Shown here: positions 2,906-56,848 of the stretch, one piece after another | Layout: every line of letters begins with the position of its first letter | How positions within the stretch are numbered: the stretch's first letter is position 1 | Source: Capsicum annuum | Taxonomy: Eukaryota > Streptophyta > Magnoliopsida > Solanales > Solanaceae | Reading direction: 5' to 3' | Assembly: GCF_002878395.1 (NCBI RefSeq) | Contig: NW_025856049.1 | Span: 62,001-126,000, forward strand | DNA length: 64,000 bases | The notes under the pieces: model-generated | Told to the model about the DNA's origin: nothing | The model's database searches: none | Seen by the model: only the letters and a program-made list of their open reading frames with translations | Position numbers and translations under genes: made by a program

Positions 2906-4100
2906 ATGATTATCACCCCTGAGACCCCCCACAACATGCTTTACCTCCACTATCCCCACGAAACCAATCCTAAACCTCCAAAACTTGAAATGTCTAAAGC
3001 CCATAACATCCTCAAATTAACTAAGTCCAACAAGAAGGAATTGAAACACAAACACAAACCTTCAGATCCAAAGACCTTATCCTCCACAAATCCAAAATCC
3101 TTAAATCCAAAGACCAAATAACCAAAGTCCTTATTGTCCCCCCTAAAGACCCCAAACTGGAAACTACCCTATTCCCATTGAAGACTATAATAAAGGGTAT
3201 CAATAAGGTTATGATGTTCCTAATGATAACTGTTGGTTTAAGGAAGAAATAAAGGCAATACATGGTCAAAGAGGGCATTATGGAAGGAACCGAGGGTAAG
3301 AAGAAAGGCAAGGAAATCATGAGGTTGGCGTTAATTCAATCAAGGTTGGTATTCAAATTTTCAAAGGTGAGAGTAATCTATAAATATATCTTTCTTAGGA
3401 ATATTCTTGTGAAAAGCTTTTACAAGTGAATGACTTTATGGAAGAGATGAAAAGTTGCTATGCTATTGCTTACTTTGAAGGATATGCCAACACTTGGTGG
3501 GATTACACAACGAAGTTAGGTAATGTGTTGATTGGCGGGCAACCACATCTTTGGGATATATTAAAGAGACTAATGAGAGAGAGATATGTATCGGAGCATT
3601 ATAGACATGAGCTCCTTGCCAAGCCTTACAACTTAAGGCAAGGTAGCAAGAGTGTCATGGAATATTATGATGAATTCCAACAACTTGTTTTGAAGCTTGA
3701 CCATAGAGTTTAACAACTGCATCATAATGTTATTCTCTTGAAGGTTTGATTTAACAAGGACATATCCTCCCGTTTGACTCTTCATAAGTTTTAAATCATT
3801 AATGGTATCTTCCAATTGGACATGGAGATTGAAAAAGAGAACAAACAGAAGTCAACGTAGAAGCTCAAAAGCCAACAAGCCTTGGGTTTAAACAAGAAAC
3901 AAGAGGTAACTCAATCTATTTATAGTTGGAACAAGGACTAATTTACTTCATCTCAAACTCCACAAATCGAGAGCAAGGTTGCCAAATACCACCCCCCAAG
4001 AAATGAAGGTAAATCTACTTTTACTTCTCATTATAAATGTCTCCAATGCTTCAATTGTCAAGGTTGGGGTCATAGGTCAAGTTAGTGCCTACATGACATA
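2906..4100 (+). pseudogene. Ty3/Gypsy-type Gag remnant with zinc knuckle
   Basis: 3330-3713 encodes a retrotransposon gag core: YFEGYANTWWDYTTK, then MRERYV, then LRQGSKSVMEYYDEFQQL, the usual 'W..F...F' and 'Q....V..Y...F..L' signatures. A CCHC knuckle lies at 4047-4088: CFNCQGWGH, four positions, then C, with one of the four being a TAG. The upstream part (2906-3330) is proline- and lysine-rich low-complexity sequence like the Gag linker. Gag would package the element RNA. Several stops and frame changes: non-functional. A complete knuckle of the same type is on the minus strand at 19475-19516. Confidence 0.75.
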
Positions 4101-4237
4101 ATTTGATTCTAAGAGAGGGGAATTTATACAATCTTAGGGAGGAAATAGAGTTGGAAACCGAGGGCAATGATGACAACTCTTAATATGGAGAGTATGTAGA
4201 ACCCAAAACTCTAGGGAAGCGAAGTGAGTAAGATGTC

Positions 4238-4852
4238 TTGCCTTTTGAGGGTGAATGTGATGTTCCTAACTATGTAGTTAGAAAAATTATGTTTGATAAG
4301 ACCTTGGATGATTCAAGCCAAAGAGCAGGTCTCTTTCACACCAAGTGCCTTGTTAAATGTGGAGTATGTTTTTTTACTATAGATAGTGGGGGTTCTATAA
4401 ACATTCCTAGTGTCACTATGGTTGACTAATTGAAACAACCCACTAACCCTCACCAAAATTCGTATAAACTACAATGGTTGAATGCTTGTGGTGAATTGAA
4501 GGTGAATCGCCAAAGCTTGATTCAGTTCCAATTGGTAAATTACAAGGATGAAGTTTTATGTGATATACTCCCCATGCAAGCATGTCATGTATTATTGGGT
4601 AGGCCTTGGAAATTTGATAAATCCATTAATCATGATGGAAGGTCTAATAGATACACACTTGAGCATAGTGGCCGAAATTTCACCCTTGTCCCTCTTCCAC
4701 CATCTAGTATGAATGAAAACCATGAGAAATATAAGTTGTCGAAGAATAAAATAAAAAGGAAAAGTGAAAAGGAGGTCTCAGGTAGTGAAGGAGAAAGGGG
4801 AACAAAATATTTAATTATGGGTCTTTCCCACAAAGGTCCCTTTACTAACTAA
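4238..4852 (+). pseudogene. Retropepsin-like aspartic protease remnant
   Basis: One frame broken by a TAA at 4427. Before the stop: CFFTIDSGGSINIPS, a DSG-type catalytic loop. After it: YKLQWLNACGELKVNR, then MQACHVLLGRPWKFDKS, INHDGRSNRYTL, and LVPLPPSS. These are hallmarks of plant Ty3/Gypsy proteases: flap, ILLG-like and 'GRPW.(F/Y)D' motifs. It would cleave the Gag-Pol polyprotein. A Lys/Glu/Ser-rich tail follows, then the ORF-U motif normally read LIVDLVHKEP (here IMGLSHKGP, near 4815). Pseudogene, but the family is clear. Confidence 0.75.
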
Positions 4853-4859
4853 CCCAAAT

Positions 4860-5780
4860 GCTAGCATTTTTCTGTGTATTTTATTTTCTTGTGTGCAGGT
4901 TCAAGAACCTAAAAGTACCAGGGAGAATCCCAAGAAAGTTACCTTCAAACCATCAGCCAAAAGTCCCAATTTTGGGATAAGTGATGAAAAAGTGAGTCCA
5001 AGGGGAAACTTGAAATATTACCTTGTAATGTGGAGAATGAAAACTGCCCTAATGTAAAACAGGATGAAAAATACACTTTCTATTATTGACAAGGTGACAT
5101 TACCACACTCAACACTTCCTTGAACTTGAAAAGTCATGATGTGACTTCTAGTGAAGCGTTCTCAGAATAGCTTAATATAGTACTACATGCTTATTTTTTA
5201 GGTAGTTCTCTTGTGGTGTGGAATGATTAATGTGCTCCAAATAATATCTCACTACTTGAACATGTGAATGGTATGATTAAAAACTTTCAAGTTAGTGTTA
5301 ATGTTTGTATTATTGATCTTGATAGTGAATATGGTCCTTTGAAATTGTGTCATGAAGGCCATGATATTAGGATTGTTCATAGTGATCATGTGTAGGTACA
5401 AGTTCCGAGTAATGCCTTGGATAATTGTGGGTTTGATTTTCCAGTAAAATGGATGAGTAACCTAGGATTAGATACTTGTCTATCTCTTTTATTTGATCCC
5501 GGTGCATTATTAGGGTGGGAAGGGGATGATTTTGTGTTGTACTCTTCTTTGTTTGATGTCTGTATTAATAATTTCCTTTGTGATGATTGTAGTAAGTGTT
5601 TCATGATAATAACAAAGGAGTAATTGCTATATTCCAAGAGTGTACCCCCTTGGTGTGTTTATATAATTGTGGTACTAATCCTAACCCTTCTATCATAAGG
5701 ATTATGTGCTTGTTGTCCCTCTCTTTGGTTTTTCAAGGTGTTAAGAATTTGAGGTTAAATTCCTTTCAAGATGAAGAGGA
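4860..5780 (+). pseudogene. ORF-U remnant (unknown internal protein) in A3
   Basis: The beginning (4900-5010) matches the ORF-U segment near 23700: VQVQEP, KPSAKSPNFGISDE. The end carries DTCLSLLFDPGALLGWEGDD (5481-5540), a MIITK block, then NCGTNPNPSIIRIMCL (5667-5715) and NSFQDEEDNTS (5757-5790), which overlaps the polypurine tract and enters the LTR. The same order is found at 8283-9195 (minus), 25200-25740 and 37740-37960. No enzymatic or retroviral domain recognised. Heavily mutated; function unknown. Confidence 0.6.
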
Positions 5781-6452
5781 TAATACAAGCTTAAAGAGCA
5801 CAATAATTATATGGTCTTGTAAAAGGTTCAAGTTTTGGATTTTTGCAACTGATTGAAGATCTTATGGAGCATTTTTGAAGCCTTGTCCTAGTGAATAGAG
5901 GAAAAAGGTTCTTGTACTCAAGAGGTTCCTCTCATTAAGGGCATTCAGGACTTTTTACTCTCCAGATTAACACTCAAGAGGTGCCCCCACTTAAGCTCTC
6001 ATTAAGGGAAATTTAGTCATTGTTATATAATAGTATAAAAAGACATTATAGCTTCTATTTTTATTTATCTTTGAAGAATTGTTGAGTGAACAAATATTAT
6101 ATTCTTTATTCCACATCCTTAAAAGTGGAATCCAAAATTAGTGTCTTCTTTGAGTGTGGAATCACTATTGTTAACATTTTGGACAGAAAGGTAAGTGCTT
6201 GAGGACATTGACCCCTTTATATCTACATAAGAGTGGGGTGTTATCCATCATTGGTGTTGTGTGTCTTGGTATTTGATACACACCTTGGTGATATTATTTA
6301 GTGTTGGTGTATGTATTATTACTATCCTTTTACTTAAATAAAATTTTGTCTTCTTTTTGTGTTGAATCCGATTGTGTGTTAGTTTATTCTACTTCATCTC
6401 ATCTTCTTCTCTTTAGATTGTGTTCTTGTGCTTGGATTCTAGTAGTTTTTTT
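5781..6452 (+). repeat. Family A LTR (3' LTR of A3)
   Basis: Starts TAATACAAGCTTAAAGAGCAC right after the purine-rich ttcaagatgaagagga. It contains two 'actcaagaggtgcc' blocks, the promoter block (tagtataaaaagac near 6030-6045) and the 'gataca' block near 6270. The end is degraded (about 6452) and no primer-binding site follows. Confidence 0.78.
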
Positions 6453-7622: not shown

Positions 7623-8322
7623 TGTTAGCTAAAAGAAAGATATAACTAAAATTCAAGGCTAAAGAAACAAAAATGAGCAACTAAAGAAAGAAGAGATGAA
7701 GTAAAAACTTGAAGAAAATAGCATTAAATGAAAGATAGTAATGAAACATACACCAACTCTAATGATCAGCACCTAAGTGTATATTAAACACTTAAACACA
7801 CCTCACCATTGATGGATAACACTTCATTCATAGGTGAACAAAAAGGGATCAACTGCTCAAGCACCCAACCTTTCTTGCAAAAATGTCAACAATAGTTATT
7901 CCACACTCAATGATTACCCTAGTTTCAATGTTTTTTCCAAGACCTACAATAAAATGGCTTTTCCAAGCTCTACACAAAGAAAGAAAATACAATTTGAGTT
8001 TCACTCAATCAATTCTTCAAAACTAATGAAAATGGAAGATAAAAGGTTTATTTATACTATTACATAACAATGGCTAAAATGCCCTTAATAAAGGGTGCTC
8101 CTTTGGAGTGTAAAAGGGAGGTCTTAAAAGACCACAATTCCCTTTGTTGAGGCGCCTATGTGATGTAGAAATACCTCTTTCTCTCTTTAATTTGGAAAAT
8201 GCTTTGTAATGGTTCCAAAAGTTCTTCAAGCACTTGCAAATCCGAGACTTGATTCTTTAACAATCTGAAGCTGAAACCTTCTTCAAGACCTTGTAAACCT
8301 TGTGCTCTTTATGCTTGTATCA
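7623..8322 (-). repeat. Family A LTR (3' LTR of A4)
   Basis: Starts on the minus strand with TGATACAAGCATAAAGAGCAC, immediately after the purine-rich tract read as aagatggagaggg (8335-8323); ends near tagctaaca at 7623. About 700 bases. Promoter block near 8040-8065. Used as the reference for the intact LTR start. Confidence 0.82.
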
Positions 8323-9730
8323 CCCTCTCCATCTTGAAAGGAATTTGACCTCAAATTCAAGCTTTGAAACCCCAAAAAGAAGGAAAACAAACGCACAATC
8401 CTCTTAATAGGAGAGTTAACATTAGTGCCACAATTATACAAATGCATCAAGCGGGCACATTCTTGGAATACAACATATAATCCTTTGCTTTGATCATAAA
8501 ACACTTACTAAAAGCATCACAAAGATCATGGCTAAGATAGACATCAAGTAGAGAGGAATGCAATCCGAGGCAAATCCTTCCCCACCCAATAGTATATACG
8601 GGTCAAATGTAAGATGTACATAAGGATCTAAGCCAACTCTACCCTTTCCTTTTACTAGAAAATCATGCTCATAATTAATCCAAGAAATTACCCTTATGAG
8701 AAATCTATCATTCAAGACAAAGGGGTTGGAACCTAAAATTTCTCCCCTATGATCAGACACACCTTTATTCACAAGTTTACCAAACACGCAATCATCATGA
8801 ACAAGATTAGTTCCTTGGTTTTTATCGCACAAACTCAAAGGACCATACTTAATATGTACAACATTACAAGCATCAACAAGCTAAGGTTATAAATATTTGA
8901 AATACATCCGTGGGCCTTTTGTGTTTGATAAAAATGTCTTAGCATAAAGGATACCAAATGCATGAATAGCATCAACATAAAAAATAAATGCACATGTCCA
9001 GAAATTATTCCACCCATACCGCGAAGGAATTTCGAGATCAAATGGAAGTAGAAGATAAAGGTCTAAGCTGCGATGACCCACTCCCTTGATTTGGCTAATT
9101 TTCTCACAATTATTCAAGGCATTAAATACAACTTTAACATACACAAGTCCACTATAAACAAGACTAATATAATGGATTTCATTGCACAAGTTCAAAGGAC
9201 TATGTTAAATACCAAGATCATCATTACAAGTATCATTACTAACATGTAAATTCTCAAACATACCATTCTCATGCTCAAGTAGTGAACCAGTTTTAAGAGA
9301 AAGTTGATCATTATTCACAAAAGAAGAGTTACTAAGGAAAGTGGTATACACTTGTAAACCCAAAAAACTTTGCTAGACACTACATCACAATATTTTGAGT
9401 TAAAAGAAGTGATGAGAGTAGCGAAGTCACCTTGGGTAAGGCTAGGGAAGTCCACTTTTTTGGCTCTCTTGGTCAAGTGAGTCTCTAGTTCTTTTCTAAC
9501 ACATTCATGTGGAACTACTTTTTGATCCTTCTTGATTATCATTTCATCTAGTACCTGCACAAAAGAAGAATCAAAGCTTAGAAAAATGCTAGCTTTTGGA
9601 TTAGGAAGTAACAAGGGTTCTTTGTGGACAAAATCCACAATCAAGCATTTCATTTCCTTTTCTACTTAACTACCCACGGTTTCCTTTTCCATTTCCTTCT
9701 TTTCTTTACACTCTTCTTGTATCTCAACGT
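8323..9730 (-). pseudogene. ORF-U (unknown internal protein) in A4
   Basis: Reading downward from 9660: CLIVDFVHKEPLLLPNPKAS, DEMIIKKDQKVVPHEC, KYCDVVSS; then (9195-8887) VYSGLVYVKVVFNALNNCE, DLYLLLPFDLEIPSRYGW and FIFYVDAIHAFGILYAKTF; then (8838-8494) LVHDDCVFGKLVNKGV; and finally YNCGTNVN and NSFQDGEGDTS (8440-8310), which crosses the polypurine tract. Blocks equivalent to these occur at 25300-25740 and 36925-37700. No known fold or active site seen; some Leu/Phe-rich stretches could be membrane-like. Frames shift several times, so this copy is dead. Possibly a captured host gene or a highly diverged env-like or pol-derived segment (inference). Confidence 0.6.
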
Positions 9731-9821
9731 CAAGCTTCTCTACATCATGAAAACCAACCTCATCACCCTAGGATTCCATCACCATCTCTTCTCTTAGATG
9801 TATGGGGTGATTTTGGTTTAA

Positions 9822-11549: not shown

Positions 11550-12955
11550 GAAAGGGAACATGTCTTTGGTAGCCTCGAATAATTGTGACAATGACATAGG
11601 AAAGTATGATTGTAGTGAAGATAATTATGGCTATGAAAAAGAGGGAAATTAGGGAGTGTATGAATATAGACATGATAAAAAAATAGGTGAAGATGAGAGC
11701 TATTATTTCAAAGAAGAGTGTAAGATGAACGATGGACCTAGTACATATAGGTAATATAGAGATAATAAAGATACTTGTGAGGGTTCTTATGAGAAAGATT
11801 GGGATTGTGAGGAGTTTTGTACTTCCCACTCCGAGTATCAAGACATTGTAAAGTATGAACTTCTATCTTATGCGCCTTATAAAAGTATTGGTGGGAATAC
11901 ACATGTGGAGTATCATATTCTTCATCTTGTAGTACTTCATATCAAAGCCAATATGGTGTGAATGGTTATACTAGCTATAGTGGCTTTTGTCCCATGAGTA
12001 GAAAAAAGTGCATATCTGAAGTCTAAGGGTACTATATCTCAAGATTCTTATTCTAGTGCTAGAATGTGTGGAAGCGAGAACCAAAGTATGGGAACCAATA
12101 TCTTCTTACTCTATCTAATTTCAAAGGAGAATGGGATCCCAAAGTTTACCTTGATTGGCATTGGCAATGTGAAGTAGTCTTCAAAGATTATGCTACAAGC
12201 GAAGACGTACAATCTACATTTTCCCTTAAGTACATACAAGGTCTTACCTTGGAATGGTGCAAGATTATAAGAAAACCCACTAAAACTTGGGGTGCCTTGA
12301 AAGATTTTTGTAGGCCAATTTATGTGACAACGGGTTATATAAAGCTTTACAATAGTGATCTAAGAAGACAACCATGTTCAAGAAAGGTAGATATTTGTGG
12401 AGTTTTGAGGTTTGTTCTTATCATTTATGATTGGTTTCATGCAAACTACATAGATCCACTTATGGTTGATCATCTAGGGATACCTAGAGTGTGCAATCAT
12501 TTCCCATACTTTTTGGTAGGCTATAGTCTCTGAGAGCATGAAGGTTTTCTTCATATGAGATGGGTACTTTGAGAAGGTACGGTTATACATATTATCATTG
12601 GAATGTGGACACTTACACTTAGATGACGTTTGCAGAACATAGATTCCAAATATTCAAAATTAGCCTTAAGTTTGCAAAGGACCAATGGGGAAATCATCTC
12701 TTTCAACTTACCCATCATAAATCTCAAGGAAATATAGCTACTTACTCCATGTCAAATAAAATTGAGAGACAAAAGATTGAGAGGAGTAAGGGAGTAAAAG
12801 GTGGAAACCTAAGAGAGAGAGAAAAAGAAGATGAAGAGTACGAAGTGAGAGGGTTGCCACCAAATAGAGCTAACATTTTTTGTCCTTCTTTTAATAAGGA
12901 CATTTGTGTATGTACCAACATAGCAAGTGGAGTAAAATAACTACCAAAAGAGAAG
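11550..12955 (+). pseudogene. Ty3/Gypsy-type Gag remnant
   Basis: 11550-11960 encodes an acidic, Tyr-rich N-terminal part (KYDCSEDNYGYEKEGN, then YFKEECKMNDGPSTYR). 12066-12533 holds the core: FKGEWDPKVYLDWHWQCEVV, VQSTFSLKYIQGLTLEWC and KTWGALKDF, a classic retrotransposon gag start ('F.G..DP..YL.W...'). 12623-12940 is a charged C-terminal part (RSKGVKGGNLREREKEDEE). No zinc knuckle found before ORF-U begins. Frameshifts and stops make it inactive. Its gag differs from the short family A start, so the element may be a better-preserved relative or another family. Confidence 0.7.
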
Positions 12956-15410
12956 ATTTCCTTTGAAGGCTTGACGAGGGAAATTGTATATGCTTCAAAA
13001 GCTTATGGAGGACCTTCACAACAAGTTAAAGAATGATGTGCTCAATAACTTTAAGGTAACATAGCAATCTCTTTCACTTTTATAAATGGGAATGATGATT
13101 GTGAGGCTAGTAGCCCATGGAGTATGTGTAGTAGCTTATCTTTATACGAGTATATTAATTCTTTGACTTTTGATGGTGATATACGTGTTGTGGGCGTGGA
13201 TACACTAGTTTATCCAATTGATAACCTAATTGGCTTTTCTTGTAAGATCAATTAGTGTCCACCTAGTGTTGAAGCGATTTATTGAATGGTAGTACATTGT
13301 CTTGTAAAAATTATTTTGATCAACTTATGTGAAAAGCTATTCCAATACTTGAGGGTGTATGTAGTCTGATTAAAGGACCTCAAGTAATTGAAAAACTTGA
13401 GAATTTTTATCAAGAAATTGGGAGTAACACTTTGAGCATGACATTTGATAAAAATACTAATGCTTAGTTGTCTCATAGGGGAAATCATGTGCTTGAAACT
13501 TATTTGGAACTTGATAGTTGCCTTTTAGAGTGTGGACTTGCTTATTATACATCCTATTTATGGATAGAACCTTCTCTCTTTAAGAACAATATCTTATTTA
13601 AAGATAATAAAATCACTTTTAGTGTGGTAGATTGCATTGTTTATATAGCTCATCTTAAGGGCTATATTCCATATGATAAACAACTATGGTGTGACAACAC
13701 TCCTCCAAAAGATGGAAATCTCTTCTTGGAAGATGAGAGTATTATTAAGGGAAAGAAATGTTAATTCTTGGAAAGGGATAATAATTGGGAGATGATAACT
13801 TTGATTTTCTTGAATACTTAAGACACACGATAATTAATTGTTCATTGGAAGATGATTCTGGATGTGATCCTTGGTATAAAACTACACCATTGTTTGATAC
13901 CTATGAGGATGAATTGCTTGCTTCTTGTGAAGGCTTAAGTAATCATACCTTTGATGTTTGTGGTAGTATGTGCCTACTTGAGAGTTTCTTCCATGGAAAG
14001 GGAAAGTGCTCATTGTTTGGAAATTTCTTCCTCTTCTACTTTGTGTGACATTATTGTTGAGAGTACTCATGGGGATGATTTTTTGACTAGTAGTGAGTTC
14101 AGACATGAGGTCACCTTAGTTGAAGTTGACTTATGTTATACCTCTCTCTACTCTCTATTTCCTTTTGATGATATGTATGCTATTGTAAAGAGTACATCTT
14201 TAATCTTGGGTAAAGCCTATGGTGGAAAAAAAAATGTTTAGACCCATGTCTATGTCCATTAATTCCTTTTAACCCCGGTGCCAATGGTGGATATGATGAT
14301 TTTGGCACACCTAATTTATTTCATGGTCTACATTACAAGCAATGTTTGATTAAAGATGTTCGTATCCTTCCCTTTGATGGAAAGTCTTTCTTGGGGATTT
14401 GAAATCCACTTGAGGGACCAACATTATGTAAGGAAATGAACTCTAACCAAGAAGAAGGGTTTTTAAAGAAGGGATCCCTGAACGGCTCAAAGAGAGTTCA
14501 ACATTGTGTGTTTCCATTTTTGACCAAAGTTTTACCACTTATTGGTCAAGAAGAGAGTCTTATCTTTAAACTACTTTGGATAATCTCTATTTATGTTATA
14601 CCCTTCTTTAAAATATGTGTAGAGACGTTGACCTCCTTCTCAAACGTAGTATCATTCTTGAGAACTGAGGGCAAATATGTCCTTATCTCTTTTGGTTAAT
14701 GCTTATATATGTGTATCCCTATTTGACACACTAGTGCTTAAATTGAATAAATTAGATCTTGTGGATGCTAAGTTGATGTTTTACTTGAAAGGAAGAAATC
14801 ATATGTGCTTATGTGTCTTGATTCCATCCTTGTGTGCCCTATGTACTATATATTTTGAGCCAAATGACATTCTTATTGGTGATAACACCTTGGATGATTC
14901 CTTTACATTTTAATCATTCCTATATTACCTATTTGCCTATGATAACATCCATGCTAGTTTTGGATTTATTTTATGTAGAGGTAGGACATTTGTTGGTTTG
15001 TCCACTTGTTTGAGTGACTTTGATAAATTTGTCTTGTGGACTTTAATACCAATAGAGGCATCACTCTTGATGTGGTCTCTTAAAGAAGAGATGAAGCAAT
15101 TGTGACTTATGTCTCCTAAGGAAAAGGTAACCTTACCTTTTCAGTTTAGTGATGCCATTCTGACCCTTATGGTTTCCTTACATCGCAGTGATTCCCATTG
15201 ATAACTCCTTTGTGCATTCTTCTATAAGTCCCTAATGTATATCATGAAGGATCCTTGGTTATATTTTAAGTGTGTGCAACCTTGGCATGATGACATAATT
15301 ATTTTTTCTAGCCTTAACCCTCATGCTATGAGGATTTGGTACTTGTTTGTCATTCCATTGATTTTGCAAGGCTTAGATTAAAGGATAAATCCTTTTCAAG
15401 AAGGGGAGGA
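12956..15410 (+). pseudogene. ORF-U (unknown internal protein), plus copy before a B-like LTR
   Basis: A long row of broken frames with ORF-U motifs in order: LFKNNILFKDNKITF, LWCDNTPPKDGNLFLEDES (13688-13740), VEVDLCYTSLYSLFPFDDMY (14119-14178), NPGANGGYDDFG, LPFDGKSFLGI (14369-14400), then PWHDDII and FQEGEDDS leading into the polypurine tract aaggggagga (15401-15410). The LWCDN block is nearly identical to that at 39453-39510. No recognisable reverse transcriptase, integrase or protease. Function unknown. Confidence 0.6.
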
Positions 15411-16110
15411 TGATTCTAGATAAATGGCCATTGAATCTTTTGAACCTATTTTTCGAGGCAAATCCAAAGAGGTCTGATCTATGATCCACTAAGAGCTCAA
15501 GATTAGACTTGGTGGACCCTTTTTAAGCTCCCAAATGCATAATTCCATATAAAGGATAAGGTTATTTAAAGACATTTCAAGAGATCAACCAGCCATGCCA
15601 CAAACCACTAAGGAAGCGAGTGAAGAAACACTTCACTGGCTCAAGGTGACGTCCTAGGATACAACAAGTCAGGAGGGTGACTAATACAGGAACAAGGATG
15701 AAAATGGACATATGTAAAAGTGCATTAACCCAAGACATGGAGTGTGCAAGTGAAGTTGAAGAGGATCCTTATAATATACAAAAACCACCCCTAAGTTGCA
15801 CTTTATTGGCGCCCTTTGCTCATATTTTATTAAAGGGCCTTTTAGTTATTTTACATCTTATTTTGTAATAGCCTATACGTAGAACATTTTAAGATTTTAG
15901 TATTTTGTTGTTCAATGATATTGTAATTATTATAACAATTTGAAACACAAGTCCTCTCTTTTTAGGAGGCAAAAATAAAATGAGATCAACCAAGTGTAGA
16001 TGCACTTGTGTTGTTTGTTTAAGGCTTAGAAACATTGGGTGCTTTGGAGATTAGTGTCCCTCTTGTGTCCACGTAAGAGTGTAGGTGTTAGTATTACATT
16101 TTTTCAGGAT
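15411..16110 (+). repeat. Family B-like LTR (variant)
   Basis: Begins TGATTCTAG directly after aaggggagga. From 15682 (taatacaggaacaagg) it aligns to the family B LTR start at 40110, including 'ggagtgtgcaagtga' and 'aaacacaagtcctctctt' (15949-15963). Bases 15411-15681 have no counterpart in the other B LTRs: either a longer LTR variant or an insertion between polypurine tract and LTR. The end is lost near 16110. Confidence 0.6.
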
Positions 16111-18596: not shown

Positions 18597-19083
18597 AGAG
18601 CTTCCCAAAGGAAGAAGTGGGCTGCCCCAACCCACACAAAGGTAAAGGTCGTAGCTCATGTGTGCTACAAGTTAAAAACTCTAAATCCTACACTTCAATA
18701 AACTTAGAATATTGTGATGTGGCTAGTAGTATCCAAATGAATGTAGTTGCGAATTTGCCTACAGAAGAGGTTCTTGAGTCTTCCTTTTGTGATACTCTTT
18801 GTGATGTTAGGTCGCGCGAGGATCAAACTCTTGTTGTATGTATGCAAGATCTAGTTGATCCTTTAGATGACGAAATTGATTCATCTCATAAGAATAATTT
18901 GTGTCCATCTAGTAGTAGCACATATAACTTGAATAAGGTTCCATAATCAACTGACAAGATTTATACACTAATTGAACCTTGTGAAAACAAAGGGGAGTCT
19001 ACATTGTTATACGAGTTGCTAACAACTAGTGAGGGCATGCAAAATGACCAATCGGGTGAAGATGAACTTGATTTTCTGGGATG
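18597..19083 (+). pseudogene. ORF-U N-terminal part in a family B element
   Basis: A 109-codon stretch open up to 18946: ESFPKEEVGCPNPHKGK, LEYCDVASSIQMNVVANLPT, SSFCDTLCDVRSRED, then VDPLDDEIDSSHKNNLCPSS. The same motifs occur at 23925-24165 and 62240-62470, and on the minus strand at 28465-28830. After a TAA at 18944 the frame goes on with the ESTLLYELLTTSEGMQND block to 19083, then stops. No known domain. Truncated by the next rearrangement. Confidence 0.6.
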
Positions 19084-21334: not shown

Positions 21335-21834
21335 TCGTACACCCAAGAGGTGCCTCAAGTGACGGTTAATGAAGACACTTTACAGTCCAAAATGATACTC
21401 AAGAGGCGCCTCCTTTGAGCTCTCATTAAGGGCAATTTTGTCATTTGACATGTAATAGTATAAATAGACCATTTCTTCACTGTTTTCATTAGATTTGGAT
21501 GAATTGAAATTGAGTATTACTCTTAGTTTAGTTTCTACCCTTAGTGTACGGCTTGGAAAAGCCATCTTAGTGTAGGTCTTGGAAAAGACATCCAAACTTG
21601 AGAGATTAATACATTTGATTGTTTTCACTTGTGTTGATCAATTGGAAAGAAAGGTGTGATTGAGGAGTGTGAATTACCTTGGTCCACCTAAGAGTGAGGT
21701 TTGAACTACTGTTGATGAGGTGTGTTTGAAGGTTTGATACACCATCTTTTGTTGACCACTAGGTTTGTCTTGTGGTTGCTGATTTTTGTGTCTTCAGTCC
21801 ATAATTTCATCTATTAGGTTTAGATCTTGTGTCA
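21335..21834 (+). repeat. Family A LTR (5' LTR of A5)
   Basis: Starts within the 'caagaggtgcctcaagtga' block; TATAAATAG at 21459-21467; ends TTGTGTCA at 21834 followed by tttgttatcaaaacg, a decayed primer-binding site. Confidence 0.8.
21459..21467 (+). promoter_or_regulatory. TATA box of family A LTR (A5 5' LTR)
   Basis: TATAAATAG in the same 'gtaatagtataaatagacc' context as the other family A copies. The matching site in the 3' LTR has decayed to TATATATAG (25952-25960). Confidence 0.6.
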
Positions 21835-23089: not shown

Positions 23090-23370
23090 ATGGGATCTAA
23101 AGGTACTACTTTCCAAACATTGGGAAATGATGCTATTGGAGCCTTGATGGCTTGGCTTGAGGCCTTGGCCTAAAAAATAGATGATAATAATGATGTTTTA
23201 TGGAGTGATAGAGATGTTTTTAGGAGAGATATGAAGGGTTATATGGGATTAATAAGGGGTAACATGACTAGAATAAAAATGAGGGTTGATAGACTATGTC
23301 CACCAAACCCCTCCTTCACAATTGAACAAAGTCCAACAAAAGGGACTTGGTACTCAAATGCTACCACAAA
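23090..23370 (+). pseudogene. gag-like N-terminus, family A (A5)
   Basis: ATG 23090: MGSKGTTFQTLGNDAIGALM, AWLEALA, a stop, then RRDMKGYMGLIRGNM and MRVDRLCPPNPS. Same plan as A4 and A7: conserved GTT...LGND start, Met/Asp/Arg-rich repeat, 'V(D)RL.PP.P', then a proline/glutamine-rich piece. The retroviral gag core is absent. Broken by stops. Confidence 0.65.
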
Positions 23371-25699
23371 ATCAAAACTACCAAATACCAAACCCAATTA
23401 ACCAAAGACCTTATCCTTCTTTCCAAAGGCCACAAAGTTAAAATCTCCCCATCCAACTTGATGAAGAGAAGGATTTAAAAACCCATGAGAGTGAGCCGAA
23501 GCCTCAAGATGGAGAGAAAATGGATGGTGAGATACAAGGAGGATGTGAAGGAAAAACGAAAAAGGAAAGTGAAGCCACGGGTTGTGAAATTGGAAATGAA
23601 AAAGAACACTTGATTGTGGATCTTGTCCACAAATGATCATTGATATTCACTAACCCAAATACTAGCATTTTGCCTAGTATTTTTGCTTCTCATGTTCAGG
23701 TTCAAGACCCTAGAAATCCCAAGGAGAAACCCAAGGAAGTTCCCTTCAAGCCCTTGGCCGAAAGTCCCAATTTTGAGATAAGTGATGAAGAAGTAAGTCC
23801 AAAGGGAATTCTTGGCATATTCTCTTGTAATGTGGAGCAGGAAGGCTGCCATGATGCAAAACCAAGTGAAGAACACACTTCTCATGATCTACAAGGTAAC
23901 AAAGCTATCTTCTACACCCCTAGAAACTTTAATTATTGTGATGTGGCTAGTAGTGGCAAAAGTGGTATAGTTTCGGATTTGCTTAGTGAAGAAGTGTATG
24001 AATATTACATTTGTGATACTCTTGGTGTTTTTAGGTTGCATAAGGACAAAAGTATTGTTTTGAGTATGCAAGCACTATTTGATTTTTTTGATGACAAAAT
24101 CAATTCTTTTCGTAAGAATGATTTGTGTCCATCTAGTTCTAGCACTTATAAATTGAATAAGTTTCCATTTTGAAGTTACAAGAGAATTTACACACTAACT
24201 GACCCTTGTAAAATCCAAGGTGAGTCTACGTTGGTATGTGAGTTGCCAACAACTAGTGAGGGTGTGCAAAATGATCAATCGGGTGAAGTTGACCTTGAAT
24301 TGCTTAAATTTTTAGGAAACCCGAATGGTGATTGTTCTTGAGAGCATGTTTTTGGGTATGATGCTTTTTCTGCTCATGGTGATTTATATCTATGTCGATA
24401 TTACTCTCTTAAAATAGAAAGTGTTGCATACTTAGAAATTCCATCTATTTCTTCTTTGTGTGTTTCCTATGTTGAGCATCCTAGTGATGATGAACCTTGA
24501 ACTAGTTAGTACTTGCATAAGGGTACCTTAGTTGATGTTGATTTGTGTGACACCTTTCTCTACTCTCTATTTGCCTTTGATGATGTGTATACAATTGTAG
24601 AGAGTATGTCTTTTAGATTAGGTGAAGCCTATGGGGATTGTTGTCTAGTTCCATGTCTAAGGCTACTCATTCCATTTGACTCTGGTGCCAAATATGGATA
24701 TGATGATGCTGGTCCACTCAACTTATTTCTTGGTCTAATGACAAGCAAACTATTATTCTTGAAAACCCGAGGGTAAATGTGTCATTGTCATCTTGGGATA
24801 ATGTTTCTAAATGTGCATCCTTTCTTGACACACTTGTTCTTGAATTGAATGAATACCAACTTATGGATGCCATTGATGTTTAACTTAAAATAAGGAAGCC
24901 ATATTTTTTAAAATGACTTGATTCCAACCTTATGTGCTAAACCTACTAAATGAATTGACATTCTTATAAATGATAGTACCTTGAAGGATGCCTTTACACT
25001 TGATGCCTTCCTATACTACCTCTTTTCTTATGATGATATCTATGTAAGTCTTGGATTTTTTTTATGTAGGGGTAGGACATTTGTTTGTTCATCCACTTGG
25101 AGTTACAATGCTATATGGCTTTTATCGACCTTTGTAGTTGCCTTACTTCCGGATGCTTCCCTTAGCTGTGTCCTTTATGATGTTTGTGGTAGCTGTTTCA
25201 TGATCATAGCGAAGGATAATTGGTTGTATTTCAAATGTGTACCTCCTTGGAGTGTTTCTTTGAACTTGTGTGTTAAAAACTATGACATTAATGTTGTTTA
25301 TAGTGACCTTATGTATGGCAAAGTTTTGTGTAATGTGTTGGATAATTTTGAAAATGATCCCCAAGTAAAAGGGATGATTAGTCTCGGCTTACGCCCTTTG
25401 TTACTTCGACCCTTTGATCTCAGCGCATTCTTAAAGTATGGGAGGGATAGCCTTGGATAATGTCCATCCATTTTTTATATTCATCCTATTCATGCTCATT
25501 GTTCTATTTATGCAAAGTATTTCAACTCACAAACAAAGAACCCATGGATGTATGTCAACTGTGAACAACCTTTGCTTATCTATATAACTTATGGTACTAA
25601 TGCTAACCCTCCTGCCTTGAGGATTGTGTGCTTGTTTTTCCTATCTTTAGTTTTGCATGGTGTGAATTTAAGGAAAAATTTCTTTCTAGATGGAAAGGA
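23371..25699 (+). pseudogene. ORF-U (unknown internal protein), most complete family A copy
   Basis: Motif order: EHLIVDLVHK (23610), VQVQDPRNPKEKPKEVPF, KPLAESPNFEISDEEVSPKG, CNVEQEGCHDAKPSEEHTS, FNYCDVASSGKSGIVSDL (23929-23985), YICDTLGVFRLHKDKSIV, DDKINSFRKNDLCPSSSSTY (open from 23640 to 24173, 177 codons); then VDVDLCDTFLYSLFAFDDVY (24529-24590), FDSGAKYGYDDAG; then a 159-codon frame (24981-25460) with NYDINVVYSDLMYGKVLCNV and LRPLLLRPFDLSAFLKYG; finally YGTNANPPALRIVCLF and FLDGKDDTS into the LTR. No recognisable retroviral enzyme. Rich in Cys, Asp, Tyr, Leu; not obviously secreted. Unknown function. Confidence 0.65.
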
Positions 25700-26325
25700 C
25701 GATACAAGCATGAAGAGAACAAAGAGTACAAGGTCCTGTAGAATGTTCAAGTTTCAGATTTTTCATGTGCTTGAAGACCTTTTTGAAAACTTTTCAAAAC
25801 CTTGTCCAAGTGAAGAAATGAAGAGGTTTCCACACTCAAGAGGCATATCAAGTGAAGGTTAATGAAGACCTTTTACACTCCAAAATGACATTCAAGAGGA
25901 GCCTCCTTTAATCTCACATTAAGGGCATTTTTGTTATTTGGCATGTACTAGTATATATAGACCATTTCTTCACTCTTTTCATTAGACTTAGATGAATTGA
26001 AATTGAGTATTACTCTCAGTGTTGTTTCTTCCCTTAGTGTAGGGCTTGGAAAATCCATCTTAGTGTAGGTCTTGGAAAAGACATCAAAACATGAGAGATT
26101 AATACATTTGATGGATTTCACTTATGTTGATCAATTGGAAAGAAAGGTGTGATTAAGGAGTGTGAATTCCTTTGGTCCACCCAGAGTGAGGTTTGAACTA
26201 CCATTGCTGAGGTGTATTAGAAGGTGTGATACACATTCTTGGTCTAATCATTGGTGATAGTAAGGTTCTCATAACTTATGATTACTTTTATGCATCTCTT
26301 CTTCATCCCCTTCTTATTGTGTTAT
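25700..26325 (+). repeat. Family A LTR (3' LTR of A5), 3'-truncated
   Basis: Begins CGATACAAGCATGAAGAGAAC after the purine tract tagatggaaagga. It includes the 'cttatgttgatcaattgg' block and is cut near 26325, where family C sequence starts. Confidence 0.78.
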
Positions 26326-28450: not shown

Positions 28451-28883
28451 AAAGGAAACAATCATCATTCGTGAGTAAATTGATCATCATTCAGATCCTC
28501 ACTAGTTATTGGTAACTCACATACCAATGTAGACTCACCTTGATTTTCACAAGGGTCAACTAGTGTATGAATACTCTTATAACTTGGTAGTGGAACCTTA
28601 TTCATAACATAAGTGAAGGCACTAGATGGAAAAAAATTATTCGTACGAAAAGAATTGATTTTGTCATCTAAAGGATCAACTAGTAATTGCGTACTCACAA
28701 CAAGAGCTTCGTCCTTATGCAACCTAACAACACCAAGAGTATCACAAATGGAAGATTCATACACTTCTCCCTAAGCAAATTCGAAACTACACCACTTTTG
28801 CCACTACTATCCACATCACAACAATTCAAGTTTCTACGAGTGTGGAAGATAGCTTTATTACCTTGTAGATCATGGGAAACATG
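28451..28883 (-). pseudogene. ORF-U segment of host element A6 (left of C1)
   Basis: Minus strand, from 28883 down: CCDVDSSGKSGVVSNLL, YESSICDTLGVVRLHKDEAL, DPLDDKINSFRTNN, PSYKSIHTLVDPCENQGEST, LVCELPITSED. It is the direct continuation, across the C1 insertion, of the ORF-U start at 57033-56849: the same motifs flank the same point in A5 (near 23880). Ends near 28451 with loss of the element's 3' half. Confidence 0.7.
28879..28883. repeat. Left target-site duplication of C1 (decayed)
   Basis: ACATG abuts the LTR; GTGTG (56849-56853) abuts the other LTR. Intact A5 has the equivalent of GTGTG here, so the left copy changed by three transitions. Five bases is the length expected for Ty3/Gypsy integrase. 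Confidence 0.65.
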
Positions 28884-36448: not shown

Positions 36449-36670
36449 ATGGAATCCGAAGGTACCACATCCCAACCTTTGGGAAATGATGCTTTGGGAG
36501 CCTTGATGGCTAGGTTTGAGGCCTTTGCCCGAGATATGAAGAGTGATCATGATCCCTAAAGAAGTGATAGGGATGCTTTTAGGAGAGGTATGAAGAATGA
36601 TATGGATACTTTTAGAAAAGACATGAGTAGAGTTAGAGCAGGGGTTGATAGACTATGTCCACAAAAACTT
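36449..36670 (+). pseudogene. gag-like N-terminus, family A (A7)
   Basis: ATG 36449: MESEGTTSQPLGNDALGALM, ARFEAFARDMKSDHDP, stop, then FRRGMKNDMDTFRKDMS and VRAGVDRLCPQK. The cleanest version of the family A start, without the codon-4 TAG of A1/A2. Acidic/basic Met-Asp-Arg repeats follow. No gag core. Confidence 0.7.
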
Positions 36671-37933
36671 TGCCAAAATTCAAATCACCAAGTTCTAAGC
36701 TAACTTGACTCAAGGCTACCTTCACAAATCCAAACAACTCAAGTCCAAATATCCTATACTTCACAAAATCCAATGATTCCTTTCCACAAGTTAGAACCCG
36801 AAGAGAATGAGGACAAGCCTCAAGATGGAGAGAATCTTGATGTTGAGGTAATATAAGAATATGAAGAAAAGAAGAAAGGTAACGCGAAACCACAGGTAGT
36901 GAAGTAGGAAAGCAAACGAATTGCTTGATTGTGGATCTTGTCCACCAAGAACCTTTGTCACTTCCTAACCCAAAAGCTAACATTTTGCCTTGCTTTGATT
37001 CTTCTTATGTGAAGGTACTAGATTCAGTAATAATCAAGAAGGATAAAAAAGGAGTTCCATATGAAATCATGAGAAATGAACTAGAGACTCCTTTGAAAAA
37101 GAATGCCAAAATAGTGGACTACCCAATCCTTACCCGAGGACACTTAACTATTCCCTACACTCCCTTGAATTTAAATTGGTGTGATTTAGTGTTATGTGAA
37201 GTAGTTTCGGGTTTTCAAGTGCATACACTTTTCCTTAGTAGATTTTTTTGTTATGAACAATGATCAACTTACTCTTAAAGCTACTCTTACCCTTCTTTGA
37301 GCATGAAATGTTATGACGTACCCTCTAGTGAGTGGGTCTCGGGTTTTCTTGACATAGGGGTTTTCAAGTTGGTGCTCATTCTTGTGATGTTGATCAAGAT
37401 ATGAAACTTGACCGTTTGATCTTGTATGATAAAAACCGTGCGACAAGTCTTGTTCATGATGATTATTTGTTTGGCAAACTTGTGAATAAAGGTGTGCTTT
37501 TTCCTAGGAGCGGATTTTTAGACCACAACCCCTTAGTCTTAACTGATATCTTTCTCATAAGGGTGATTGTTTTCGGTAATTGTGAACATGATTGTCTAGT
37601 TAAAGAAATGGCTAACCTCAAGATAGCCCCTTGTTTACTACTTCCCTGTGACCTCGGAATACCTTTAAGATGTGGGAGGTGTGGTTTCAATTCATAGTTC
37701 TTACCTTTTAATGTTGATTCCATTCACTTCATGTGTATCCTTTATGACAAGATTTTCATTCCCAATACAGAGGATGCATGGATGTATGTTAAATGTAAAC
37801 CACCTTGGAGTGAAGATGTAATTGTGGTACTAATGCTAACCCTCTTACCAAGAGGATTGTATGCTTGTTTTGCTCCCTCTTTGGTTTTGTAAGATCTGAA
37901 TTTGAGTACAAATTCCTTTTAAGATGGAGAGGA
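36671..37933 (+). pseudogene. ORF-U (unknown internal protein) in A7
   Basis: CLIVDLVHQEPLSLPNPKAN (36925), DSVIIKKDKKGVPYEIMRNE, LNWCDLVLCEVV to 37263; then LVHDDYLFGKLVNKGVLFP and PLVLTDIFLIRVIVFGNCEH to 37697; then CKPPWS and the NCGTNANP(L)TKRIVCL equivalent, and the polypurine tract aagatggagagga (37921-37933). Alignment with the A4 copy (9653-8310) is collinear through these blocks. No known domain; frames broken. Confidence 0.6.
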
Positions 37934-38634
37934 TGATAAAAGCATAAAGAGCACCAGGTTTACAAGGTCTTGTAGAAGGTCAAAGGATCTAGCTTGGATT
38001 TGCAAGTGCTTGAAGACCTTTTGGAACCATAATAAAGCCTTGTCAAAATTGAAGAGAGGAGGAGGGATTTCTACATCACACAGGCACCTCAACTAAGGGC
38101 ATTGTGGTCTTTTAAGACCATTCTTTTACACTCCAAAGGAGAACCCTTCATTAAGGGAATTTTAATTATTGTTATGAAATAGTATAAATAGACCTTTTAG
38201 CTTCCATTTTAATAAGACTTTGATGAATTGGAATTGTGTATTACTCTTACTGTAGTTTCTTTCCTTAGTTTAAGGATTGGAAATGCCATCTTAGTATAGG
38301 TCTTGGAAAAGACATCCAAACTTGAGAGATTAATACATTTCATGGATTTCATTTGTGTTGATCAATTGGAAAGAAATGTGTGATTGTGGAGTGTGAATTC
38401 CTTTGGTCCACCTAAGAGTGAAGTTTTAAATACCATTGATGAGGTGTGTGTGAAGGTTTGATACATTTTCTTGTGATAATCATTGGTGATAGTAAGGGTC
38501 TCATTACCTATCTTTACTTCTATGCATCTCTTCATCATCTCTTTTCTTATTTGTGTTGTTTTCCTTATCTTGTGGTTGCTGATTTTTGTGTCTTGAGTCC
38601 TTAATTTCGTTTTTAGTAGTGTATTCTTGTATCA
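37934..38634 (+). repeat. Family A LTR (3' LTR of A7)
   Basis: TGATAAAAGCATAAAGAGCAC ... ATTCTTGTATCA, 701 bases, TATAAATAG at 38183-38191. Followed by a primer-binding-like ttggtatcaaag (38636-38647), unexpected after a 3' LTR. Confidence 0.85.
38183..38191 (+). promoter_or_regulatory. TATA box of family A LTR (A7 3' LTR)
   Basis: TATAAATAG in 'aaatagtataaatagacc', matching the 5' LTR copy. Transcription from here would run into the B2 ORF-U. Confidence 0.6.
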
Positions 38635-38765: not shown

Positions 38766-40109
38766 ACCTTAGTTTTGAAGGACTTTCACACCAAGGTAAA
38801 GACGAACATACTCATGAATGTCAAGGTAAAATAACTATCTCTTTCACTTTGGTACATGTGGATGATGAACGTGTGACTAATAAACCATTAAGTATGAGAA
38901 GTATCATACCTACATATGTTTATATTGATTCTTTACCACTTTCATAAGATGTACATGTTATCCGAGTGGATACACTAGTTGATCCTATCGATGACCGAAT
39001 TGACTCTTCTAGTATGATTGATTTGTGTCTACATAGTGTTGAATCTATTGTGTTGTATGAAAGCACATCGTCGTATAAAAATTGTATTGACTAACTTCTG
39101 TGTAAAACTTGCCCACCACTTGAGAATATGTGTGATGTGATTAATAAGGCACAAGTGAGTGAACAATTTGAAAATATTGGTCAAGAAAAAAGGAGTGAAC
39201 CCGTGATCCTATATTGTTGTAAAGATTCTAATGTTTCCTTCGCTCATAGGGTTAATCGTGTGCCTGACATATCTTTGAAACTTGATAATGATTCCTTAAA
39301 TAGTGAAAGTTCCAAATCTGTCCGCGGGTTAGATCATTCACTCTTTAGGTATAATTTCTTGTTTAAAGATAATTTAAACATTCTTAATAGACCTAGAGGT
39401 GAAAATGATGGTACATCTTTCCTTGGAAGCTATAGCCTATATGCGAACCCACTATGGTGTGACAACATTCCTCCTAAAGTTGGAAATCTCTTCTTGGAAG
39501 ATGAGAGTACTCTTAAGGGTAAGGAATGTGTGGTCTTGGAAACTACTACTTCTTCTACTTTATATGACTTTTATGAGGACACCATAGTAGAAGTAGAATT
39601 GAGTTCAACCTTTCTCTACTCTCTCTTTACTTGTGATGATATGTATGCAAATTTAGAGAGTAGGATGTCTGGTTATGGTAAAGACTATGGGAAATAGGTG
39701 TGTTGTTTAGACCCGTGTCTATGGCCACTCTTCCATTTGATCCCAGTTCCATCTTAGGGTGGGGAAGATTTTCTCTCGGCTTAGGCGCATTTCTTTTGGG
39801 TGCTTATCATAGCCAAGTCCATGGTGAATTTTTCGATGGCTTCATAATGTTTAACACTAAGGACTCTTGGTTATATGTTAAATATGAATCACCTTGGCAT
39901 GTTGAGACTTGTTGTTGGCCGAGACTTGAACTTAAAGGGTCCTCAGTTTCTTGTTTTTTGGTGTGGGCTGTTTTGAGTGTTTTGAATGCATACCATTATT
40001 GTTTTTTTTGCTAATCCTAACCCTCATTCCATGAGGAAGTATGCTTGTTTGTCTCTCCTTGATTTTGCAAGGCATGGATTTGAGGTCGACCTTTTTATGG
40101 AGGGGAGGA
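38766..40109 (+). pseudogene. ORF-U (unknown internal protein) in B2, longest frame
   Basis: The 189-codon frame 39128-39697 is the longest uninterrupted ORF-U stretch: VNRVPDISLKLDNDSLNSES, LFRYNFLFKDNLNIL, LWCDNIPPKVGNLFLEDEST, LKGKECVVLETTTSST, VEVELSSTFLYSLFTCDDMY. Upstream (38800-39120): VDTLVDPIDDRIDSSS, LLCKTCPPLENM. Downstream (39715-40109): LPFDPSSILGWGRFSLG, TKDSWLYVKYESPWHV, then the polypurine tract tatggaggggagga. It matches the 12956-15410 copy almost block for block. No recognised domain, no transmembrane pattern that I would trust. Confidence 0.65.
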
Positions 40110-56185: not shown

Positions 56186-56848
56186 ACCACGGATCAACTA
56201 GTCATTTGTATTATATGACATGCAAAGATTATGAAGTAAGAAAGGTAAAATAAAGAAAGGACTGTAATGTACCTGATCCTTCAAGAATATAAAGGTGGTC
56301 TACATGCACTATTTATTCACTGGTATCTGATTTATATTGAGCTCTTGTATCATGTGTTGTTACATATTTTCGTACTCACGTCCCTCACAGGGGACCTGTA
56401 TTTCATGCTGCAAGCATAGGTGCTTCAGCTATTACACCTCCTAAGTAGAAGCACACTCTATTCAGTGACTAATGAGGAGCTCCAGGTTGATTCGGGGCTT
56501 TCTGAATTTGTTCCATATGTTTAGGTATTGCATTGAACTCAATAGTAGGTTGGGAGTTTGTCCCGACCCTAGATAAGTCTATGTATCTTTTATAGGCTTT
56601 ATAGACTAATGTAAAGTTAAACATAGTAGTGTCTTGTCTTTTAGATGTGGTGGCCCCTATGGCTAAGTGTCGTATATATTATTTTTTGCTTTCCATTATA
56701 GTTAGTCTCATAAATGCATAATATTATATTTGTCTAAACCTTTGGTTGTCATAGTTACATGCAAGAGAAGTACCAGGTTATGGATTGGTTCTTTCGGGCC
56801 TTTATGGCTACGTGTGCCTTCCTCCCCAATAGTATTTGAGGAATGGCA

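What the first reader, a model, noticed from the sequence alone, without database searches (positions are those of the whole stretch)
23371..25699. ORF-U: a recurring internal protein of unknown function in place of pol
At least eight copies in this window (4860-5780, 9730-8323, 12956-15410, 18597-19083, 23371-25699, 28883-28451 with 57033-56849, 36671-37933, 38766-40109, 61911-63475) share ordered short motifs: LIVDLVHKEP, YCDVASS, CDTLGVxRLHKD, DDKINSFRKNDLCPSS, VDLCxTFLYSLF, LWCDNxPPKxGNLFLEDES, LP(F/Y)DGK(S/T)FLGI, GTNxNPxxxRIVCL. The copies are in elements with LTRs, a primer-binding site and a gag-like start but no reverse transcriptase or integrase. Seen: the shared motifs and their order. 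Inference: an ancestral protein of well over 700 residues that elements keep carrying, either a captured host gene, an extremely diverged pol part, or a new retroelement protein.
Basis: partly seen in the sequence, partly recalled or inferred. Interest (0 to 1): 0.9.

Follow-up and report, generated by a model that had tools for sequence, protein, structure and literature searches.

The report
Unknown ORF replacing polymerase in retrotransposons
Pepper and potato relatives carry a large family of "borrowing" jumping genes in which the copying enzyme has been swapped for a long reading frame of unknown function that stayed readable while its letters changed almost freely.

Summary
The window is Capsicum DNA. 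All nine listed places share a long reading frame; the named copy has 10 stops in 684 codons against 42 and 95 in the other frames.

ORF-U is the 3' part of a gag–protease–ORF-U frame in a Ty3/gypsy-type LTR family. Of 32 protease-bearing copies examined (40 scored), 31 have ORF-U right after the protease and none shows RT or integrase. Two sisters share leader, gag and protease (69–84% DNA identity) and have RT downstream instead. Many young copies lack gag and protease but keep LTRs, PBS and PPT.

Relatives occur in Solanum (annotated proteins up to 790 aa). No credible Pfam or PDB match and no host donor gene was found.

Selection is odd. In the same 11 loci gag+protease give dN/dS 0.36 and ORF-U 0.86, about neutral for this method, yet ORF-U stops are 0.18–0.31 of neutral expectation: the frame was kept open, its amino acids barely constrained. 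In young copies, alleles with shared stops multiplied too.

Verdict: a pol-less, TR-GAG-like family with a new ORF; a new variant of a known kind. Function unproven.

The parts
21339..21764 (+). part of the 5' LTR of the named element (LTR positions about 134-558; the first ~130 bp are missing or rearranged)
   Evidence: 88.7% to the L014 LTR; 88.5% to 25832-26240
23090..23400 (+). start of the element's ORF: ATG and N-terminal stretch (piece A), decayed
   Evidence: (ATG), piece A; similar N-terminus in P0008 and L009
23400..23800 (+). charged segment and protease-RT linker (LIVDLVHK...TNPNTSILPSI...), the beginning of ORF-U
   Evidence: piece B; continuous with the protease tail in one open frame in L040:1874-2539
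23637..24170 (+). ORF-U block C, longest open stretch of this copy (178 aa)
24174..25690 (+). ORF-U blocks D, E, F with TFLYSLF..DD-like repeats, decayed
25660..25705 (+). coding tail that contains the polypurine tract, abutting the 3' LTR
   Evidence: related tail in P0045, P0066, P0067 and L017
25701..26331 (+). 3' LTR of the named element
   Evidence: 84-87% to L014 and L027 LTRs, 68% to L025
3246..3812 (+). gag (capsid) of the element that carries the 4754-5907 ORF-U copy
   Evidence: 68% to L034 gag, which matches Retrotrans_gag at E 1.7e-13
4097..4738 (+). aspartic protease region of the same element
   Evidence: 61-74% to L037/L034 protease halves; Pfam RVP_2 only weak, E 0.16, on L037; none on the window's own two pieces
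4754..5907 (+). ORF-U copy directly after the protease
8262..9812 (-). ORF-U copy in the element with LTRs 7642-8322 / 10864-11549
12120..12353 (+). weak gag match upstream of the 13-15.4 kb ORF-U copy
   Evidence: 28.6% to L034 gag, E 2e-5; no Pfam hit for the ORF 12063-12530
13003..15417 (+). ORF-U copy with the LWCDN block
18611..19078 (+). ORF-U fragment, blocks C-D
28480..28883 (-). ORF-U fragment; its other part is probably 56815-57315, split by a nested insertion
56815..57315 (-). ORF-U fragment, 5' part of the split copy
36480..37985 (+). short ORF-U copy in the element with LTRs 34514-35203 / 37934-38647
38773..40106 (+). ORF-U copy with the LWCDN block
62154..63436 (+). ORF-U copy

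Best explanation
ORF-U is the 3' part of the single reading frame of a pol-less Ty3/gypsy-type LTR retrotransposon family of Solanaceae (Capsicum and Solanum). An ancestor with leader, gag, protease, RT and integrase lost what followed the protease and gained ORF-U there; the cis signals (LTRs, tRNA-type PBS, PPT) were kept. Shown: the anatomy, sisters with RT in that place, multiplication, relatives in two genera. Inferred: the elements make their own Gag and protease (these show purifying selection) and borrow RT and integrase from RT-bearing sisters that share leader and gag; ORF-U is translated as a C-terminal extension of Gag-Pro. The frame was kept readable before insertion, but its amino-acid content drifts at about the neutral rate, so what mattered most was probably an uninterrupted frame to the 3' LTR (for example a stable, translated genomic RNA). 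Later lineages without gag and protease became passengers; ORF-U is then no longer needed in cis.
For: Position: ORF-U follows the protease in 31 of 32 protease loci and RT/integrase hits occur in 0 of 32; the same RT queries do find RT in the sisters. L040 reads protease tail, linker and ORF-U in one natural open frame of 222 aa. Sisters: L065 and L062 align with ORF-U elements over up to 2.4-3.0 kb of leader and gag (70-84% DNA) and through the protease (69-73%), then stop matching; RT begins about 0.1 kb on, in the same orientation (L068 E 1e-64, L067 E 9e-37). Gag: Retrotrans_gag E 1.7e-13. Mobility: 16 LTR pairs, K2P 0.027-0.128; exact 5-bp target repeats in 4 of 16 by eye. Cross-genus: P0064 and P0068 of potato, P0066 and P0067 of S. 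verrucosum. Selection: same 11 loci, gag+protease dN/dS 0.36 (bootstrap 0.33-0.39), ORF-U 0.86 (0.77-0.98), higher in 11 of 11; neutral simulation gives 0.74-0.87 for ORF-U pieces. ORF-U stops are 0.18-0.31 of neutral expectation, gag/protease 0.45-0.72.
Against: L039 (1 of 32) shows neither ORF-U nor RT; L070 (1 of 5 downstream stretches) shows nothing. The protease call rests on similarity within the family, recalled motifs and a weak Pfam match (E 0.16). Shared stops in young copies (14 seen, about 8 expected) show that an open ORF-U was not required in recent bursts. Some blocks hint at constraint: D/E pairs 0.47-0.76, U_L040b 0.66, linker 0.53, and amino-acid identity between subfamilies slightly above neutral (hit selection favours this). 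Copies of an ordinary pol family 83% alike also give 0.79, so dead copies look neutral in any case. Translation of ORF-U is not shown. Comparisons share queries.
Confidence: 0.68

Rival explanations
1. ORF-U encodes a fast-evolving accessory protein under host conflict (for example counter-silencing). Amino acids change at or above the neutral rate because a host target keeps moving, while stops are purged because the protein matters.
For: Two of four ORF-U pieces lie above all 16 neutral simulations: U_L037 1.12 (simulated max 0.96) and U_L040a 0.94 (max 0.92). Third-position share of the four pieces is 0.27-0.34 (neutral 0.31-0.33). Strong stop depletion. Precedent: the VANC anti-silencing proteins of Arabidopsis VANDAL elements (abstract of PMC10398659).
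Against: Pooled dN/dS is only about neutral; U_L034 (0.83) is within the simulations and U_L040b (0.66) below the mean. The simulations do not model shared ancestry of the compared copies, so their spread is too narrow. No domain found, and structure models without confidence. Nonsense alleles spread in recent copies. A word search of PMC5735166 for positive selection gave no passage.
Confidence: 0.22
2. ORF-U is a pure passenger: an exogenous coding stretch trapped once, then carried as filler with no selection at all; its openness is a leftover of its origin.
For: dN/dS in frame equals control frames in young copies (0.74-0.88 against 0.60-1.01); shared variants spread about evenly over codon positions; shared stops as frequent as neutral expectation.
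Against: Between divergent lineages stops are far below expectation (0.18-0.31). Stop-free stretches of 393-538 aa occur in seven of 20 fetched loci of different structure; annotated Solanum proteins reach 790 aa.
Confidence: 0.2
3. ORF-U is a captured host gene.
For: Capture of host genes by LTR elements is known in plants (text of PMC7264820), and ORF-U has no recognised retroviral domain.
Against: Profile search of 5.8 billion proteins at E<=1 gave 66 proteins: 52 named Capsicum, 4 named Solanum, 10 unnamed; no donor gene was recognised, but only 14 of the 66 were opened. No single-copy host locus was sought directly.
Confidence: 0.1
4. ORF-U is an extremely diverged RT-RNase H-integrase.
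For: It occupies the pol position, and the TFLYYLFAYDD repeats look faintly like an RT motif.
Against: The DD of that motif is not kept between the repeats (AYDD, AYDL, AYDE in P0062). No Pfam RT or integrase at E<=1 in 15 members. Sisters with recognisable RT have clearly related gag (72-74% aa in the main hits), so pol would have had to diverge far faster.
Confidence: 0.04

Closest known systems
[quoted passage not shown]
   Same: LTRs, own gag, no POL region, related RT-bearing elements present (class as described in passages of PMC5818461 and PMC8704663; the founding paper is not held)
   Different: Here a protease and a long extra ORF follow gag in the place of RT and integrase; many copies lack gag but keep that ORF.
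LARD elements (large retrotransposon derivatives)
   Same: Non-autonomous, LTR-bounded
   Different: LARDs lack coding regions (passage of PMC5818461); here most of the interior is a decayed long reading frame.
Plant LTR retrotransposons with additional ORFs (env-like sense aORFs; Grande, RIRE2, Retand antisense aORFs)
   Same: Extra ORF of unknown origin and function in many copies (PMC7264820, parts 1 and 2 of 3 read)
   Different: Those add an ORF to gag-pol; this one is sense, in frame with gag-pro, and stands instead of RT and integrase. No 19-residue hydropathy window above 1.6 in P0062, P0068, P0045 (maxima 1.57, 1.20, 1.59).
Non-autonomous centromeric retrotransposons of coffee and rice
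   Same: Gypsy-type elements with gag but no pol, beside autonomous relatives (passages of PMC5818461)
   Different: No ORF-U-like replacement is described in the passages read.
Bdelloid rotifer LTR retrotransposons with captured ORFs
   Same: LTR elements carrying additional ORFs (PMC5408684, search listing only)
   Different: Not compared here.
VANC anti-silencing proteins of VANDAL elements
   Same: Possible functional parallel only: a transposon protein in an arms race (abstract of PMC10398659)
   Different: Recalled to be DNA transposons; no sequence relation shown.

Membership tests
LTR retrotransposon, Ty3/gypsy type | paired LTRs, PBS next to the 5' LTR, PPT next to the 3' LTR, short target-site repeats | tested here: met
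   LTR pairs in 17 of 20 fetched loci, 16 of them measured; PBS in 15 of 16, PPT in 15 of 16, exact 5-bp repeats in 4 of 16 (L015, L017, L018, L027), by eye; no LTR pair seen for L016, L019, L026
LTR retrotransposon, Ty3/gypsy type | gag with Retrotrans_gag domain | tested here: met
   L034 E 1.7e-13, L040 E 3.2e-10; not in the named copy's own element
LTR retrotransposon, Ty3/gypsy type | RT before integrase in pol | tested here: not met
   ORF-U elements show neither (0 of 32); the placement rests on gag/protease and on RT-bearing sisters, whose integrase was not seen. The lineage within Ty3/gypsy was not determined.
TR-GAG | gag present, POL region absent, LTRs present | tested here: inconclusive
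   gag present in protease-bearing copies and RT/integrase absent; but a protease and a second long ORF are present, and the named subfamily lacks gag
TR-GAG | mobilised by a related autonomous element | not testable with these tools
   sisters with RT found; mobilisation not tested
LARD | long interior without coding capacity | tested here: not met
   natural open frames of 393-538 aa in seven of 20 fetched loci
LTR element with additional ORF | extra ORF besides complete gag-pol | tested here: not met
   RT and integrase hits in 0 of 32 loci examined
captured host gene | homologous non-transposon gene in the host | tested here: inconclusive
   none recognised among 66 hits, 14 of them opened; seeding by short exact words limits sensitivity

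The most novel reading that the evidence does not exclude
A retroelement protein family, unrelated to any known one and probably older than the Capsicum-Solanum split, in which selection guards the open reading frame but not (or even against) the amino-acid sequence: either a translation-only requirement (a ribosome-readable path to the 3' LTR that keeps the genomic RNA stable or packageable) or a host-antagonist evolving at or above the neutral rate, carried by elements that gave up their polymerase for it.
Probability: 0.28. Interest if true: 0.85.

Novelty: new variant of a known kind. Interest (0 to 1): 0.62.

Why it matters
Non-autonomous retrotransposons are abundant in plant genomes, and why some keep long unknown ORFs is open. 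Here one copy set allows gag, protease and the unknown ORF to be compared under the same history, and they behave differently: two are constrained, the third is mainly kept open. That makes "is the frame or the protein selected?" directly testable. It may also explain Capsicum and Solanum gene models that contain ORF-U stretches.

Tried and rejected
Structure prediction: C-block alignment mean pLDDT 35, 15-member alignment pLDDT 33; no fold search was run on them. Pfam, NCBIfam and PDB: nothing credible for ORF-U. The gp120-like match of the E block (Pfam E 0.042, 12.8 bits against a cut-off of 27; PDB E 0.011) is rejected as chance. Viral contigs: P0062 finds no relative. Self-BLAST for internal repeats listed none; a motif scan shows the TFLYYLF..D unit three times in P0062 and P0064, twice in P0068, P0045 and L014, once in the other four frames scanned. 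Large indels between subfamilies looked in frame by eye, but the alignment was too fragmented to count. dN/dS over blastp hits between subfamilies (0.60–0.82, one class 0.54) mixed misaligned stretches and was replaced, which drops gappy hits: third-position share 0.333–0.341 at all distances (neutral simulation 0.31–0.33, omega 0.5 0.40–0.45). Window-only comparisons gave ORF-U 0.78–0.86, no lower than control frames taken together. Host-gene capture and diverged pol were considered and set low.

No description of this family was seen in the listings (open-licence full text only). PMC7076952 (Capsicum LTR elements): 12 of 28 passages seen. PMC5735166: term search, no passage. Chaparro 2015 (TR-GAG) is not held.

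Full report
WHAT IS THERE. The window lies in a 3.2-Gb genome. Named proteins that match block C best are from Capsicum, and so are 52 of the 56 named ones in the wider search, so I take this to be pepper DNA. The named copy reads in one main frame from an ATG at 23090 to the PPT at about 25700. From 23637 to 25690 it has 10 stops in 684 codons; the other two frames have 42 and 95. A genome search with block C alone had 2154 first-look candidates, of which 40 were scored, at 88–100% identity; the true copy number was not counted but is probably in the thousands.

THE YOUNG COPIES. I fetched 20 of those 40 places with flanks. Seventeen show an LTR pair; L016, L019 and L026 do not. Sixteen pairs were measured: K2P 0.027–0.128, median 0.068, or roughly 1–5 million years at 1.3e-8 per site per year, a conventional plant rate. 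By eye, 15 of 16 show a PBS of the type TGGTATCAGAGCC, 15 of 16 a PPT, and L015, L017, L018 and L027 exact 5-bp target repeats. Interiors are 2.1–4.1 kb. RT, integrase, gag and protease hits in these loci lie outside the LTRs. Natural stop-free ORF-U stretches reach 538 aa (L019), 463 (L020), 437 (L017), 417 (L014) and 400 (L026); on the antisense strand only one frame reaches 150 aa. Outside four reference copies, the stretch after block C has 30 stops in 4040 codons. The copies fall into several structural subfamilies that share block C but differ in blocks D–F.

THE FULLER ELEMENT. The window copy at 2.7–5.9 kb has gag (3246–3812), protease (4097–4738) and then ORF-U. Searching the genome with its protease-to-linker DNA gave 978 candidates, 40 scored. 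I examined 32 of the 40: of the 12 best (one is the window itself) 11 show ORF-U after the protease, and of 20 more, 20 do (in L052 the match ends after about 0.5 kb). L039 shows neither ORF-U nor RT. RT or integrase appears in none of the 32, with queries that do find RT in the sisters. L040 reads protease tail, linker and ORF-U block C in one natural open frame. The gag is a real gag (Retrotrans_gag E 1.7e-13 in L034). The protease match in Pfam is weak (RVP_2, E 0.16); I call it protease from its place and from motifs recalled, not from a strong call.

THE SISTER WITH RT. A search from the gag start had 1257 candidates, 40 scored. Of five downstream stretches that I could fetch, two hold RT (L067, L068), two hold ORF-U (L069, L071) and one neither (L070). 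The two RT-bearing elements (L062 with L067, L065 with L068) match ORF-U elements over up to 2.4–3.0 kb of leader and gag at 70–84% DNA identity and through the protease at 69–73%; the match then stops. About 0.1 kb between the two fetched pieces of each was not read; RT follows in the same orientation. So the two kinds share a backbone and differ in what follows the protease. Integrase and LTRs of the sisters were not seen.

BEYOND PEPPER. A profile search with 15 natural ORF-U sequences found 66 proteins at E<=1 (63 at E<=0.001): 52 named Capsicum, 4 named Solanum, 10 unnamed. P0068 (potato, 699 aa; only E 0.17 in the profile search) is 53% identical to P0062 over 350 aa. Annotated proteins may be spliced models, so their length is not proof of one open frame. 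P0066, P0067 (S. verrucosum) and P0045 end in the PPT-coding tail. P0066 carries an RNase H match, but after that tail, so I read it as a gene model run into a neighbouring element. Many Capsicum hits are named as carriers, kinases or cytochromes; of the proteins with such host-like names or domains I opened P0006 and P0028, and I take the rest, from the listing, as gene models fused to ORF-U. No Nicotiana or tomato name appeared, which is weak evidence because retroelements are often masked.

SELECTION. In young copies dN/dS in the ORF-U frame equals that in the two control frames (0.74–0.88 against 0.60–1.01), shared variants are spread about evenly over codon positions, first positions somewhat ahead, and stops shared by copies are 14 against about 8 expected. 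One such stop is shared by copies of several subfamilies. So recent multiplication did not need an intact ORF-U. Between divergent lineages the picture changes. In the same 11 loci, gag+protease give dN/dS 0.36 (bootstrap over loci 0.33–0.39) and third-position share 0.44; ORF-U gives 0.86 (0.77–0.98) and 0.30. Neutral simulation through the same pipeline gives 0.74–0.87 for ORF-U pieces; the four pieces lie at 0.83, 1.12, 0.94 and 0.66. The linker piece lies at 0.53. Stops per codon in the ORF-U pieces are 0.0053–0.0097 where 0.028–0.036 is expected if stops were free; gag and protease are at 0.45–0.72 of expectation, ORF-U at 0.18–0.31. In the same 11 loci stops per codon are 0.018 in gag+protease and 0.008 in ORF-U. 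As a further control, three integrase pairs in the window show a clear third-position excess (0.48–0.54), while two copies of one pol family give 0.79. Limits: alignments come from protein hits, comparisons share queries, the simulations ignore shared ancestry, and old copies mix constrained and dead history. A few D/E block pairs give 0.47–0.76, so weak constraint is not excluded.

HOW IT MOST LIKELY WORKS. Shown: a gag–protease–ORF-U element in place of gag–protease–RT, mobile, numerous, with relatives in two genera. Inferred: RNA from the 5' LTR is translated into Gag-Pro-ORF-U; Gag and protease build particles; RT and integrase come from sisters that share leader and gag. Open: why the frame of ORF-U stays readable. 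The evidence fits either a need for an uninterrupted frame to the 3' LTR, whatever it says, or a fast-changing accessory protein. I hold the first slightly more likely.

WHAT IT IS AMONG KNOWN THINGS. It works like a TR-GAG element (passages in PMC5818461 and PMC8704663) but carries a protease and a replacement ORF, and the named subfamily lacks gag, so I do not file it as a plain TR-GAG. It is not a LARD, which lacks coding regions, nor an element with an added ORF beside a complete pol as reviewed in PMC7264820 (parts 1 and 2 of 3 read). No description of this family was seen in the searches listed under Tried and rejected.

Noticed in passing
window 28884-56848: Probable large nested block that splits one ORF-U copy; its parts lie at 28883-28480 and 57315-56815 (minus strand). 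Target repeats were not checked.
   Followed up: partly
window 40465-48732: Probable LTR element with long repeats (40465-42865 / 46363-48732, about 2.4 kb, 85.7% identical) and RT/integrase on the minus strand at 43399-46050; each repeat holds a ~170-bp tandem duplication (42266-42606, 48133-48473).
   Followed up: no
window 26417-31687 and 50267-56841: Two related stretches, 83% identical over 26417-28106 / 50267-51952 and 28886-31687 / 54007-56841, with RT matches at 26.8-28.1 and 50.7-52.1 kb.
   Followed up: no
window 19712-20245: A gag match on the minus strand (41% to L034 gag, E 2e-34) with no ORF-U copy assigned to it.
   Followed up: no
proteins P0011, P0012, P0017, P0022, P0026, P0039 and others (listing only; P0006 and P0028 opened): Capsicum gene models named as carriers, kinases, transporters and the like match ORF-U, probably annotation fusions with this retroelement.
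   Followed up: partly
P0005 (LOC124892086) and P0008 (LOC107860413) of Capsicum annuum: Reference gene models that begin in the element's own N-terminal region and run into ORF-U; LOC107860413 is listed with two isoforms, which hints at transcription.
   Followed up: no
window 1-1470: Inverted repeat pairs (1-332 / 1470-1141, 90%; 642-837 / 861-1056, 88%) in sequence that also matches the leader regions of this family.
   Followed up: no
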